A DNA stretch of 64,000 nt from positions 20,047,930-20,111,929 of the forward strand of contig CM034549.1 in assembly GCA_020055645.1 (NCBI GenBank), read 5' to 3'. The translations under genes were made by a program, and so were the position numbers. The DNA is from Tomocerus qinae (Eukaryota > Arthropoda > Collembola > Entomobryomorpha > Tomoceridae). Shown here one piece after another: positions 49,001 to 55,000 of the stretch. Each line of letters begins with the position of its first letter. Within the stretch, counting starts at the first letter, position 1. The notes beneath the pieces are model-generated. The model saw only the letters and a list, made by a program, of their open reading frames with translations. It ran no database searches and was not told where the DNA came from.

Positions 49001-52000
49001 TGTTGCTACTTTCTCACCGTTCCCCTTTCCTACAAGTTTTATTTTTGTAAAAAGATATCGAATATATTCTTGTGGCCAAGATGTATCTTTTTACTGTGTT
49101 CCTTAGACAGAAACGCAATTTTCCTTAAAAACGTGGTTCTTTCACCAACTGCTTTGTCAATAAATTCACAACGTGTGTCTGCTGTATTTCTTTGCTATGG
49201 TTGATTGCAGCTGACGTGATGAATTTTTTACGACATCTTAACTAAAATACGTGCATGGCTAAAGCTCAACCGGAATATCCACCCAGTGTAACAGTGTTAA
49301 GATATTAGTTCTCACAAATTGACATATATAGCAAGTTTATATAGTAAATAGGGATTTAGCAACTATTTTTTTCCTTCTTAGGGAAAGTTAAGACAGTAAA
49401 AATGACCTTGACGCACGAAGGAAGAACCCACTATTTATGCAAAGGTAGCTACAGCTACTACATATGCTGTATTTTTTTGGTCTAGGGTAATACTTTTTGC
49501 TCCATAAATAACCCAAGACTAATGACTTGCTTTGAAAGAGTAATATAAGAGTCTTTTTATGCAGTATATAGTACGAGTATAGTACAGTGAAGAAGCAATC
49601 CTCGTTGATTCCCAGAGACTGAGAAAGTTGCGAAGTTTCTCATTACTCATTTCCTTTCGCACATGTAGTAAAATATCTGCATAGGTAATCCGCTATAGCC
49701 TTAGCACAACAAATACGAGTATGTAGGACAACATACGGATAGCGTCAATATAAATATACGAGCGTATTACTACAAAGTCGTAGGAGTTGGGTTGAGTGAG
49801 TGCTTCAGAGCAGACGTGCTTGGCGATCTGTCCTGATAATTTTATTTACTACACTTGTACTTTATTTCGTAATATCTTTATCTCATCAATATTATTGTAA
49901 ATCCTTATTTTATTGGATAAACAACGCTACTACATTATATTAGTAGATTTTTAATGTATTTTTTTGCTTCTAATGTAATGTAATACGTTCCCTCAAATTT
50001 TATAAATTCTTCTATTGAAAATAACAATCTGCGAATCTGGTCAATAAATCAGGTAACAAGCAATATATTTGTAAGTTAGAAATTAAAATGTGTCAGAAAA
50101 ACGATTTATCTACTTTAAAATATTGGGAATTTAAAGGAAATGTTTCAACTAGTTTTGGATTATTTTAATAATTTTATAAATTAAAAAGAAATATGTCAAT
50201 GAGTTTTGCATTATTTTTAAGCAAGGTTTTGAGATACGCTGGTTTTATTACCTAAATGAAAAGTCTCATGGAAAAACGATTTACCTACTTTAAGATTTTG
50301 TAAATTTAAAAGAAATGTGTCAATGAGTTTTGTATTATTTAAAACAAGGTTTTGAGCTACAAAAGTGTCATGGAAAAACGATTTACCTACTTTAAGGTTT
50401 TTTGGATTTAAAGGAAATGTGTCAATGAGTTTTGCATAAAAGTCTCATGGAAAAACGATTTACCTACTTTAAGATTTTGTAAATTTAAAAGAAATGTGTC
50501 AATGAGTTTTGCATTATTTTTAAGCAAGGTTTTGAGATACGCTGGTTTTATTACCTTAATGAAAAGTCTCATAGAAAAACGATTTACCTACTTTAAGATT
50601 TTGTAAATTTAAAAGAAATGTGTCAATGAGTTTTGCATTATTTTTAAGCAAGGTTTTGAGATACGCTGGTTTTATTACCTTAATGAAAAGTCTCATAGAA
50701 AAACGATTTACCTACTTTAAGATTTTGTAAATTTAAAAGAAATGTGTCAATGAGTTTTGCATTATTTTTAAGCAAGGTTTTGAGATACGCTGGTTTTATT
50801 ACCTTAATGAAAAGTCTCATAGAAAAACGATTTACCTACTTTAAGATTTTGTAAATTTAAAAGAAATGTGTCAATGAGTTTTGCATTATTTTTAAGCAAG
50901 GTTTTGAGATACGCTGGTTTTATTACCTTAATGAAAAGTCTCATAGAAAAACGATTTACCTACTTTAAGATTTTGTAAATTTAAAAGAAATGTGTCAATG
51001 AGTTTTGCATTATTTTTAAGCAAGGTTTTGAGATACGCTGGTTTTATTACCTTAATGAAAAGTCTCATAGAAAAACGACTTACCTACTTTAAGATTTTGT
51101 AAATTTAAAAGAAATGTGTCAATGAGTTTTGCATTATTTTTAAGCAAGGTTTTGAGATACGCTGGTTTTATTACCTTAATGAAAATTCTCATAGAAAAAC
51201 GATTTACCTACTTTAAGATTTTGTAAATTTAAAAGAAATGTGTCAATGAGTTTTGCATTATTTTTAAGCAAGGTTTTGAGATATGCTGGTTTTATTACCT
51301 TAATGAAAAATCTCACGGAAAAACGATTTACCTACTTTAAGATTTTGTAAATTTAAAAGAAATATTGTCAATGAGTTTCCCTATCATAAAATTTAGAAAA
51401 ATATTTCAACAATATGGAATATAGTAAGCATTTTAAAACTTTATATATTAATAGAATGAGCTATTAAAATTATACACATATACTTAATGTCATGAAGCTA
51501 TTCGCTATCGTTTTAAGCAAAAGTTTTGTACCCTTGTCACCTTCAATTCTTTAGAAAAAATTAATATGTTGACTAAGTATACTGTGGAAATGTAATGTTC
51601 TCTCATGGAAATCCTGCAGAATACGCTAAGTAATAGAAAAATAAGCAGAATACATCTTCCCACGATTTTCAAACAATTTTAATGGATCTTCACTGATATC
51701 AACTTACAAGGACGAGCTATTCTTCACTCTATCACCGCTGTAATAATATCCCAACGAATACAATTATTCAATGTAATCTGTAACTATAATATTGTCGTCT
51801 GATTGTGTGTAATATATTTATCAATGTGAGATAAGTAACCACAACTCGAGTCATATTAACTGTGCTACATTTTACAGCCTTAAATGTCTATGTTTACAAT
51901 TTCTTCACACTCTTTAATCTGGTTATCGCCTTGTCAGCACTCACTCAGCCCAACTCCAAAGCATTAATTAAGATATAATATTAACAGTTGTGTTAATTTT

Positions 52001-55000
52001 ACGATGTAAGGACCACTGGTCACATCATCAAGAAATGAATAAATAATAATAATAAAATAATAATACTACAAAGTCGTAACCAAAGAAGATCATGTAACAT
52101 TCCTACGTCAGCATTGCTATTTTTTCCCTGTCTGTTCTAAAAATAGAGAAAAATATCTTCTTTCAGACAGTTTACGGTTTGAAAAGCAAGTAGTCTACCT
52201 CAGCCCACCGGAGTTCAGTCATTATTTACCTAATGACAAAGGAGAGAAAACCAAACATGGAGTAGGTGTAAGTACATTTTGTTTGTTTAGGTAGTGAAAA
52301 ACACATTTGAGCACTAAATAACTAAATACACTGCTAATGCTCCTGGCCTTTTTGCAAAATCATTCATAGCATAATCGCTAATGTAGCAGAGAAATACAAC
52401 TTTCTACAAAATACTCTCATAAGTACAAATAGCGGGGAATAAAAAGAGATCGTTAACAGCTATAGTGGTAGATTATAAGAGCATGATGATTTTATAAGGG
52501 AAGAAAAGGAAATAATAGAATAGGAAACAGCAGAGGGTGCACTAGCAAACCAAAGAGAAAGCATATCGTTCCAGAAGAGACTGTACGGTAGAGAAAATCA
52601 ATTTTCCCCAAAGAGTATGTGCGCCGCAAAGATTGCAGTTTCTGTCCGTCGGACAAAATATCACACGTTCAGTTCAACCAGAGAAGATTTCATCCAACGA
52701 ACATTGAGCAGCTTCAGCAGCTTCACCCAGACCAAGCCAAACGAAACGAAACCTGGAGAAGTCAAGCCAAGCGAATCGTTTCTCTTGCTCTGTTTGCCTT
52801 GGCTTGGTTTCCTATTCACATGCTTTCGCTTCCCTCCCTCAACTTTCAACTAAAATTCGACTACTCAACTGCTGAAACTTTCTCTCCAGCCAAGTCAAGA
52901 CACAGAGAGGAAGTAAATGTTAGATTTCTAATGTAGTCGAATGTAGAAGGGTACAGAGGCCTGGCGACTCGTACCTACTGCAAATATACTCAACTACTGA
53001 CTGATTGTCTGACTATTTCCTTGGACTCAAGTGTTACACTGCGAATTCTAATGTAGAATTTGGTGGAATAGAGATACAAAGTTCTTATAATATATCCGGC
53101 GTACCACTAGCCTAGTTCCACTGCATTACCTACTGCTTTATATATCACACATACACACCAACAAAATCAATAGCCAAAAATGTCAAAGACAGACACTCTC
53201 AATTCTCTATACTTTCTATCTCCGACATCACATAAACTACTCTGCTTTCTACGAATGAGCAATCTAATGTTACATAGCTAGTCTTTTCTCTCCCCTTTCT
53301 TTTATTCATAGATGTTAATTCGGCAGAAGTGAATTGAAACAAAAGTTACACCCGCCTATACAAATACTTAAATATAGTTCAAACTATTCACATATAAATA
53401 AGTATATTGGCAAGAGTCAATTGTCTAGCAACATTGGGAAGTGAAGAATAAAGCTGAATCGACTCATGCTACACTTGCTAAGTTGAGCTATCCCACGAAC
53501 CAGCATTCAAACAACTCCTCAAGGAAACTACAAAGAAAACTGCATTAACTTTTTTGCAGACTTGACAAATCTATTCTATGCAGTCAGATATTTTGGCTCT
53601 CTTCGTTTCTTCAATTCTTCCCTGACATGACATTTGAACTTTCCTTCCATTTATATATACACCCATAAAATTAAACGAGCACACACGAATCAAAATCAGC
53701 TGGCCTAATGGCTTTAGAGCTTTGCCCTACTAAAAATCATTTATCATTTCACTCTTCCTCTCTAACTTAATATGTCACAGATAGCAATTTTCTCTTAAGT
53801 GAAAGCTTGGAGAATGAAGAGAAGAAAATATGAGAAATTGATAGACCTAAATGAGTCTTAATAAAAAGCAACTTTTAATCTCATGAAGAATGCAGATGAA
53901 CCATTATCATTAACTCAGTTGCAAGAGCTGTATACTGCAATTCCGAATGAATAATCTACACAAGATCGTGACTTGAAAGACCAAAATCTACTTGTGAGCG
54001 GAGAAGAATTGAAATATGAAATTTTAAACAATCAACACGACTCCCTACCCTGTTAAGACATAGTAGCATGTATTTGGAGAACGCATTATAGAAAGCTTGG
54101 GCTGGAGAAGATTGCATGGGGCGAGGGAATCTTATTCATTCTTAAGGATACAATAATTAAATGCTTTCCGAGTATTTATTTCATGCTTAGTACATTATAT
54201 AACGTTTTACGAGAGTCCTGGAAATGGAGTCCTTGTGTTTATCACTACTCAGAGTATAAGGACAGAGCCTGGGTAGTTCAGTTTCAGATAGTGACTAACT
54301 TTATTGCTTAAGGGAAGACATGTACCACACTATACAACAGACAACGGAATTATTAAACGTGGGTGAAAGATTGTCTGAAACGTGGGTGAAAGATAGACTT
54401 TTGTTTGCTTTCTCCAGGAATGTGAAAGCGATTACTTGAACACAAGTGCCCAGACTTTACTTTACTACTGTTTGCTTTGTCTCGCCTACATGATTTAAAA
54501 TATAGACTGTATATAATGAAAATACAACTTAATTTGATAATATATCTTCCAGAATATTTTACATGTGCATTTAGGTACATTTTCAAGAAAATGTAAAATG
54601 CACATTTAGGTCAAAAGGCTTTCTAAATGTTAGTTCTGGTGAATAATTTAATTGCTGAACTTTTTCTATCGAGGATGATGTATGAAAGAGCATAATGCGA
54701 AAAAATGACATTTACTGCAATGCACAATTTTTGCAGGATTTATAAAGGACAAAACTATTTTTTCCTGTAAGAGTTAGGTAAGGACAGTTGAGGTTATCAA
54801 TGAATTTTTCTACTTACTGGAGAAAACACGACAAAATGATACTTTGGGGATTAATATATTCATGTAAATTGCTTTAGTTTCAAAATGAAAGGATGCCCAT
54901 GACAGGGACAACGACAGCGACTAAACAATGCAAGACTGACGAGGAAACTTGATTCGGATGGGCTATTTCTGCCATTTTCCATCCGACTGTTTAATGCTCA

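What the first reader, a model, noticed from the sequence alone, without database searches (positions are those of the whole stretch)
49768..52078. Insertion with 15-bp target duplication, internal inverted repeat and a 124-bp satellite array
A perfect 15-bp direct repeat brackets 2281 bases. The left element end begins, at the very next base, with 21 bases that recur inverted at 51937-51957, about 106 bases before the right end. The right end is an AAT-rich tail. The middle is a homogeneous tandem array. LINE-like ends (long duplication, simple tail), transposon-like inverted repeats and an internal satellite do not match any element class I know well. It may be a mobile satellite carrier that seeds arrays at new sites.
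Basis: partly seen in the sequence, partly recalled or inferred. Interest (0 to 1): 0.72.

Follow-up and report, generated by a model that had tools for sequence, protein, structure and literature searches.

The report
Non-coding retroposon carrying a satellite array
This is one copy of a small family of non-coding jumping elements that most likely spread through RNA and carry a block of tandem repeats to new places in the genome, with an RNA whose start is predicted to pair with a point near its end.

Summary
A 2281-bp element (49783-52063) lies between perfect 15-bp duplications; its first 22 bases pair with 51936-51957, and its core is a 124-bp array. It belongs to a dispersed family. Of 22 independent two-ended copies, 18 have their own 10-18 bp duplication; 0 of 462 mismatched flank pairs do. 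Varying duplications, an AAT tail, 5'-truncated copies, and two 3' stem-loops with compensatory changes point to LINE-type reverse transcription of a non-coding RNA, not to a TIR transposon. The window copy is chimeric: its first 2025 bp match L021 with two differences, the next 246 aligned bases match L025 exactly, and 20 bp are missing at the join. The arms are better conserved than most of the element and pair in the four full-length RNAs folded, so a panhandle RNA is plausible, though pairing is not shown to be the cause. A second family shares the 3' arm and stem-loop; its one sampled copy has a 25-bp array, but the 5' arm predicted for it was not found. The helper LINE was not identified. 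The closest functional parallel is primate SVA/LAVA.

The parts
49768..49782 (+). left target-site duplication, TACTACAAAGTCGTA
   Evidence: exact repeat
49783..52063 (+). the element (2281 bp), no open frame over 75 codons in this copy
   Evidence: family boundaries; frames
49783..49804 (+). 5' arm (22 nt); can pair with 51936-51957
49812..49818 (+). AGACGTG at element nt 30-36: resembles the downstream promoter element of insect LINEs (CGTG core); function inferred
   Evidence: present in all 24 two-ended rows; comparison with PMC4748587 (passages)
50361..51378 (+). tandem array: 77-bp period 50361-50514, 124-bp period 50438-51378
51379..51935 (+). 3' body, not tandem; query 51370-51770 matched family loci apart from C1:65923517-65923716, which was not fetched
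51807..51808 (+). join of two lineages: up to 51807 L021-like, from 51808 L025-like, with 20 bp missing against both
51936..51957 (+). 3' arm
51980..51997 (+). stem-loop 1 of the 3' end
   Evidence: alignment A1 and pair counts
52003..52029 (+). stem-loop 2 of the 3' end (GATG/CATC and GACC/GGTC), compensatory changes
   Evidence: also in the second family
52040..52063 (+). TAAATAATAATAAT-type 3' tail, varying in length between copies
52064..52078 (+). right target-site duplication

Best explanation
A non-autonomous, non-coding retroposon moved by a LINE's enzymes. Shown by sequence: dispersed copies with common ends, a private 10-18 bp duplication at most two-ended sites, an AAT tail, 5'-truncated copies, a chimeric window copy, and conserved 3' stem-loops. 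Inferred: RNA polymerase II starts at or near the first bases under a downstream promoter element; the RNA closes into a panhandle (nt 1-22 with a block 106 nt from the 3' end), leaving the two stem-loops and the UAA tail free; a helper LINE's reverse transcriptase binds that free 3' end and primes on a nicked target. The array changes on source copies and is then copied along with the rest.
For: Shared ends: left-end search 42 matches, right-end search 41 matches (matches, not copies); 24 rows with both ends. Duplications: 18 of 22 with at least 10 bp against 0 of 462 mismatched pairs. Truncated copies with duplications: L048 (13 bp), L056 (15 bp), L058 (16 bp), 3 of 11 rows looked at. Chimera in the window copy. 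3' stem-loops: 96.5% of cells paired, 4 of 15 pairs changed on both sides, 0-1 of 500 shuffles as high, slid versions far lower. Arms: all 22 pairs in 12 of 24 rows, at least 18 in 23 of 24; in the old copies L045 and L047 the 5' arm (nt 3-22) is 20/20 identical to the window against 126/172 and 123/172 for nt 61-225, the 3' arm 20/22 against 59/111 and 57/100 upstream, both 3' changes keeping a pair; folds of 4 full-length copies pair the arms with mean probability 0.885-0.994. No open frame over 75 codons in the window copy, no tRNA or Rfam match, 60 runs of four or more T.
Against: No helper LINE with this 3' end was found; only 5 of 150 scored RT matches (2332 first-look candidates) had a 3' region read. 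Transcription, start site and panhandle are predicted only. Other old copies keep the 5' arm less well (L046 19/20, L044 17/20), L042 forms only 12 of 22 pairs, and nt 23-40 are as conserved as the arm (16/18 to 17/18), so promoter function alone could explain the 5' side. The predicted 20-nt 5' arm of the second family was not seen beside its copies. Folding energies of the short end pieces are not unusual (z 0.33 and -0.12). Four of 22 copies lack a clear duplication in the strict test (L026, L037, L040, L045); L040 shows 13 bp with 18 extra bases between. Eight of 11 truncated rows show no clear duplication. Some other copies have longer open frames (115 codons in L023/L024, 113 in L038-L041, 131 in L047), not examined for coding.
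Confidence: 0.86

Rival explanations
1. A DNA transposon or MITE whose terminal inverted repeats are the two arms, later extended by a tail.
For: A 22-bp inverted repeat starts exactly at the left end.
Against: The right arm ends 106 bp inside the element in the window and is followed by further element sequence in the two-ended copies; duplications vary from 10 to 18 bp; truncated copies with duplications exist; no transposase-length frame in the window copy.
Confidence: 0.04
2. By origin, the internally deleted remnant of an autonomous LINE: its own 5' UTR with promoter and its own 3' UTR, coding part lost and a tandem array gained.
For: Promoter-like 5' end resembling insect LINEs and a LINE-like stem-loop tail. 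A second family shares the 3' arm and stem-loop.
Against: No coding LINE with either end turned up in the left-end, 5'-68-base, right-end and pattern searches, though not every hit was fetched. This concerns origin, not mechanism, and is compatible with the best explanation.
Confidence: 0.35
3. A SINE-type element transcribed by RNA polymerase III.
For: Non-coding, dispersed, 3' stem-loop tail.
Against: No tRNA, no Rfam match, 2.3 kb long, 60 runs of four or more T, which would end such transcripts (the T-run rule is recalled).
Confidence: 0.03
4. The chimera in the window copy came from gene conversion or crossing over between DNA copies and not from a template switch during reverse transcription.
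For: Homologous DNA copies exist on several contigs.
Against: The change of lineage coincides with a 20-bp loss and runs from the join towards the 3' end, as a switch during cDNA synthesis would give; the flanking duplication is intact. Small deletions near this place also occur in L026 and L023/L024, so the spot may simply be unstable.
Confidence: 0.25

Closest known systems
SVA and LAVA VNTR-composite retroposons of apes
   Same: Non-coding, central tandem array that differs by lineage, moved in trans by LINE-1 (abstract and section 9 of PMC4432496; abstract start of PMC7353768 in a listing). Length of about 2 kb and own target duplications are recalled.
   Different: AAT tail and 3' stem-loops in place of poly(A); paired arms; different host; array unit 124 bp. 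No sequence comparison with SVA or LAVA was run.
Insect LINEs with downstream-element promoters (jockey, Doc, F, G, I)
   Same: CGTG-type element about 28-32 nt from the start (PMC4748587, passages). The I factor's transcript ends in UAA repeats (title of a cited paper seen in the reference lists of PMC2881922 and PMC3747384).
   Different: No coding region; relation by sequence not shown.
Trypanosomatid Pr77 elements (NARTc, RIME, SIDER)
   Same: Non-coding members share a 5' promoter block with a CGTG element (PMC4748587, passages).
   Different: Different hosts; no array or paired arms known to me (recalled).
Satellite-carrying Helentrons of oyster and Tetris of Drosophila virilis
   Same: Mobile elements linked with tandem arrays (titles and starts of abstracts in a listing, PMC7492417, PMC4079207).
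   Different: DNA elements; here duplications of 10-18 bp, tail and truncations point to reverse transcription.

Membership tests
LINE-mobilised (non-LTR) retroposon | variable-length target-site duplications | tested here: met
   18 of 22 copies, 10-18 bp; 0 of 462 controls
LINE-mobilised (non-LTR) retroposon | simple-repeat 3' tail | tested here: met
   AAT-type tail at the 3' junctions printed; the tail is weaker in old copies such as L045
LINE-mobilised (non-LTR) retroposon | 5'-truncated copies with intact 3' end and duplication | tested here: met
   L048, L056, L058; the other 8 of 11 rows show no clear duplication
LINE-mobilised (non-LTR) retroposon | helper LINE sharing the 3' end | tested here: inconclusive
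   not found, but only 5 of 150 scored RT loci had a 3' region read, and for L069 the frame had closed early so the 3' end is uncertain. Not required if only the tail is recognised
SVA/LAVA family | Alu-like, SINE-R or L1-derived domains | not tested
   no comparison with those domains was run; the families are hominoid-specific by the abstract of PMC4432496
SVA/LAVA family | central tandem array that varies by lineage and is inherited on retrotransposition | tested here: met
   L028, L030, L031, L032 and L034 have different duplications and the same unit order except for the last interval (171, 171, 205, 171, 172); L038-L041 share another order, though L038 and L039 have about 400 bp more on the 3' side
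I-clade LINE dependence | helper with I-type RT and RNase H | not tested
   no helper found; only the UAA-type tail and the CGTG position resemble it
SINE | Pol III promoter from tRNA, 5S or 7SL | tested here: not met
   no match; 60 T-runs
TIR DNA transposon or MITE | inverted repeats at both termini and fixed-length duplication | tested here: not met
   right arm 106 bp inside; duplications 10-18 bp
Helitron or Helentron | no target-site duplication | tested here: not met
   duplications present; defining feature recalled

The most novel reading that the evidence does not exclude
A group of non-coding retroposons built as an RNA panhandle: the 5' end locks onto a block just upstream of the 3' recognition stem-loops, so that only RNAs with an intact 5' end present the 3' end properly and full-length copies are favoured, while the closed loop is free to hold any tandem array. 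Different families carry unrelated arrays (124 bp here, 25 bp in L074). Reverse transcription sometimes stops at the foot of the stem, giving truncated copies that begin 2-9 nt beyond it (L059, L058, L056).
Probability: 0.28. Interest if true: 0.75.

Novelty: new variant of a known kind. Interest (0 to 1): 0.52.

Why it matters
It shows a route by which satellite-like arrays are carried to new chromosomal sites through RNA in a 334-Mb genome (probably an invertebrate, not tested), parallel to primate SVA/LAVA. If the panhandle matters, it gives a simple handle on why some non-coding RNAs are copied full length by LINE machinery, testable by breaking and restoring one arm. Searches of the open-access library for a paired-arm retroposon (10 of 15 papers listed) and for SVA-like or array-carrying elements outside primates (15 of 98, 10 of 27) showed no title or abstract start that describes such an element; the papers themselves were mostly not opened.

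Tried and rejected
TIR transposon, Helitron and SINE readings were rejected for the reasons in the membership table. Helper LINE: left-end, 5'-68-base, right-end, 116-base tail and three pattern searches gave no coding partner among the places read; 3' regions of five RT loci (chosen by eye for long RT matches) had other tails (for example CTATT and AATC repeats, by eye) and only short matches to the tail (best E 0.009). L067, a possible partner tail, proved to be a lone degraded relative: its search found itself and one family copy. The hope that the second family's 5' end would show the same panhandle failed: (20 nt, up to 3 mismatches) gave 52 places, the reversed control 20; those near the second family were its 3' arms. 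Rfam and tRNA scans were empty. The bacterial promoter scan does not apply to this genome. In one search automatic tail calls for L029, L047 and L060 were wrong; for alignment A1 I left out L029 and L060, gave L047 and L045 by hand-set coordinates, and trimmed L056-L059 and L067, so the 36 rows (27 distinct) are chosen rows. L067's stem is misaligned in A1.

Limits: the whole-genome tool scores only its best candidates, so copy numbers are lower bounds. The two-ended set (24 rows) requires matches near both query ends; L029, L036, L043, L044, L046 and L060 and the truncated rows were left out of it.
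Full report
WHAT IS THERE. The window contains a 2281-bp element (49783-52063) between two copies of TACTACAAAGTCGTA, a 15-mer found at no other place on the window's + strand. Exons of enolase, an HSA/SNF2-type ATPase and an NADH dehydrogenase subunit mark it as a eukaryote (4 of 7 window frames given had Pfam matches); that it is an animal, probably an arthropod, is my impression and was not tested. The element has a 5' region, an array of 124-bp units (50438-51378, 7.6 copies), a 3' body, and a short 3' end with an AAT tail. 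This copy has no open frame over 75 codons; some other copies have frames of up to 131.

A MOBILE FAMILY. The left 301 bases gave 42 matches and the right 316 bases 41. I fetched 40 regions. With the window, 24 rows have both ends, or 22 when two duplicated sites are counted once. The ends recur at nearly the same bases, and the neighbouring repeats differ from site to site. In a strict test 18 of 22 copies have a repeat of at least 10 bp at the element start, and none of 462 mismatched flank pairs does (longest 9). The exceptions are L026 (5), L037 (8), L045 (7) and L040 (4; a looser look shows 13 bp with 18 extra bases). Of 11 truncated rows looked at, three have clear duplications: L048 13 bp, L056 15 bp, L058 16 bp; the other eight do not, with a doubtful 11-bp repeat at L049.

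REVERSE TRANSCRIPTION. Varying duplications, a simple tail and 5' truncation are signs of target-primed reverse transcription. Further support is the make-up of the window copy. Against L021 it differs by one base and one gap over 49783-51807 (2025 bp); then 20 bases of L021 are missing and the two diverge. In a comparison of 51806-52053 the window matches L025 in 246 of 246 aligned bases, five other copies (L027, L028, L030, L032, L034) with one difference each, but L021 in only 93%. The simplest reading is that the enzyme began on one RNA and switched to another; DNA-level exchange is not excluded, and deletions near this spot also occur in L026 and L023/L024. At L056 an 18-base stretch at the truncated 5' end is repeated, as if synthesis had stuttered (by eye).

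THE 3' END. In an alignment of 36 chosen 3' ends (27 distinct), two stem-loops hold 96.5% of cells paired; 4 of 15 pairs have changes on both sides, against a mean of 1.0 in shuffles (1 of 500 as high), and slid structures pair 23.6-65.6%. Related sequences can exceed shuffles without structure, and the structure was drawn from these sequences, as the tool warns, so this is good but not absolute evidence. Single-sequence folding of the window's 3' end is unremarkable (z 0.33). For LINEs of the stringent type a 3' stem-loop is what the enzyme recognises (abstract of PMC5135761).

THE ARMS. The first 22 bases pair with 51936-51957 (one G-U). Of 24 rows, 12 form all 22 pairs, 23 form at least 18, and L042 forms 12. 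In folds of four full-length copies the arms pair with mean probability 0.885-0.994, and the duplex is worth -43.3 kcal/mol. In the old copies L047 and L045 the 5' arm (nt 3-22) is 20/20 identical to the window and nt 61-225 is 123/172 and 126/172; in L046 and L044 the arm is 19/20 and 17/20, against 119/175 and 125/172. In L047 and L045 the 3' arm is 20/22, against 57/100 and 59/111 upstream and 53/86 and 53/81 downstream; both 3' changes keep a pair. But nt 23-40, which do not pair, are also 16/18 to 17/18, and conservation next to the 3' arm runs somewhat past its ends, so promoter or protein binding could be the cause; pairing as the cause is inferred. Of 12 truncated rows, three begin 2-9 bases beyond the foot of the 3' arm (L059, L058, L056) and L067 begins 2 bases inside it; I noticed this after the fact and it is only suggestive.

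PROMOTER. AGACGTG begins at nt 30 in 21 of 24 rows and at 29 or 31 in the other three. Insect LINEs jockey, Doc, F, G and I carry such an element about 28-32 nt from their start (passages of PMC4748587). If the start is the A at nt 3, AGACGTG begins at +28 and its CGTG core lies at +31 to +34, a near but not exact fit. This is inferred.

THE ARRAY. Unit orders differ between subfamilies but are shared by copies with different duplications: L028, L030 and L032 alike, L031 and L034 except for the last interval, and L038-L041 another group, of which L038 and L039 have about 400 bp more on the 3' side. So the array changes on source copies and is then copied. L026 and L033, the same insertion on two contigs (flanks 486/500 and 398/400 identical), differ by 280 bp, so the array also changes after insertion. 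In SVA and LAVA such changes were traced to the DNA level (PMC4432496 section 9). Free arrays were not found, but only the listed hits were looked at.

A SECOND FAMILY. A pattern for stem-loop 2 found 83 places, against 0 for the reversed pattern; 27 exact matches have the loop AAA (counted by eye), unlike this family's copies. One of them, L074, has at least 1026 bp of a 25-bp array, running to the end of the fetched stretch, then the block CTCAACCCAACTCC (as in the 3' arm), a stretch 87% like element positions 149-200 of the window family, stem-loop 2 and an AAT tail. A search for its arm found 52 places with up to 3 mismatches, against 20 for the reversed control; 27 have at most one mismatch, and of these 23 have the stem-loop 125-131 bases on and one 713 bases on. 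No matching 5' arm was seen near them, which counts against the panhandle as a group feature. That the other copies carry the 25-bp array is untested.

HELPER. RT-bearing frames are abundant (2332 first-look candidates, 150 scored). Five 3' regions were read and none fits; in L069 the frame had already closed, so its true end is uncertain. The helper remains unknown.

VERDICT. It works like SVA or LAVA: a non-coding, array-carrying retroposon most likely moved in trans by a LINE. I do not file it in those families. Its paired arms, and the sharing of its 3' end with a family whose one sampled copy holds a different array, make it a new variant of a known kind.

Noticed in passing
L074 (G000:C6:2392470-2393770) and further places: A second family with the same 3' arm block and stem-loop; the one copy read has at least 1026 bp of a 25-bp array.
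   Followed up: partly
L074 and window 49931-49982: The second family's 3' end holds a stretch 87% alike to the window family's 5' interior, in the same orientation: an unexplained rearrangement between families.
   Followed up: no
L057, between the 3' arm and the tail: About 700 bp inserted with TTAA on both sides, as piggyBac-type elements do (recalled).
   Followed up: no
L035 and L040, 5' junctions: Extra bases between duplication and element: GAGTTG (repeat of the element start) in L035, 18 bases in L040.
   Followed up: no
L023 and L024 (C1:50.20 and 50.16 Mb): Same insertion in a segmental duplication about 39 kb apart, flanks 500/500 and 498/500 identical.
   Followed up: partly
L047: A 4.2-kb old copy whose array is split by about 1.7 kb of other sequence.
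   Followed up: no
L068-L072: LINE-like frames followed by short-repeat tails (CTATT, AATC and others, by eye), several with a hairpin-like stretch just before the tail.
   Followed up: no
window 3981-29345: Exons of enolase, an HSA/SNF2-type remodelling ATPase and an NDSU1/NuoG-like NADH dehydrogenase subunit.
   Followed up: partly
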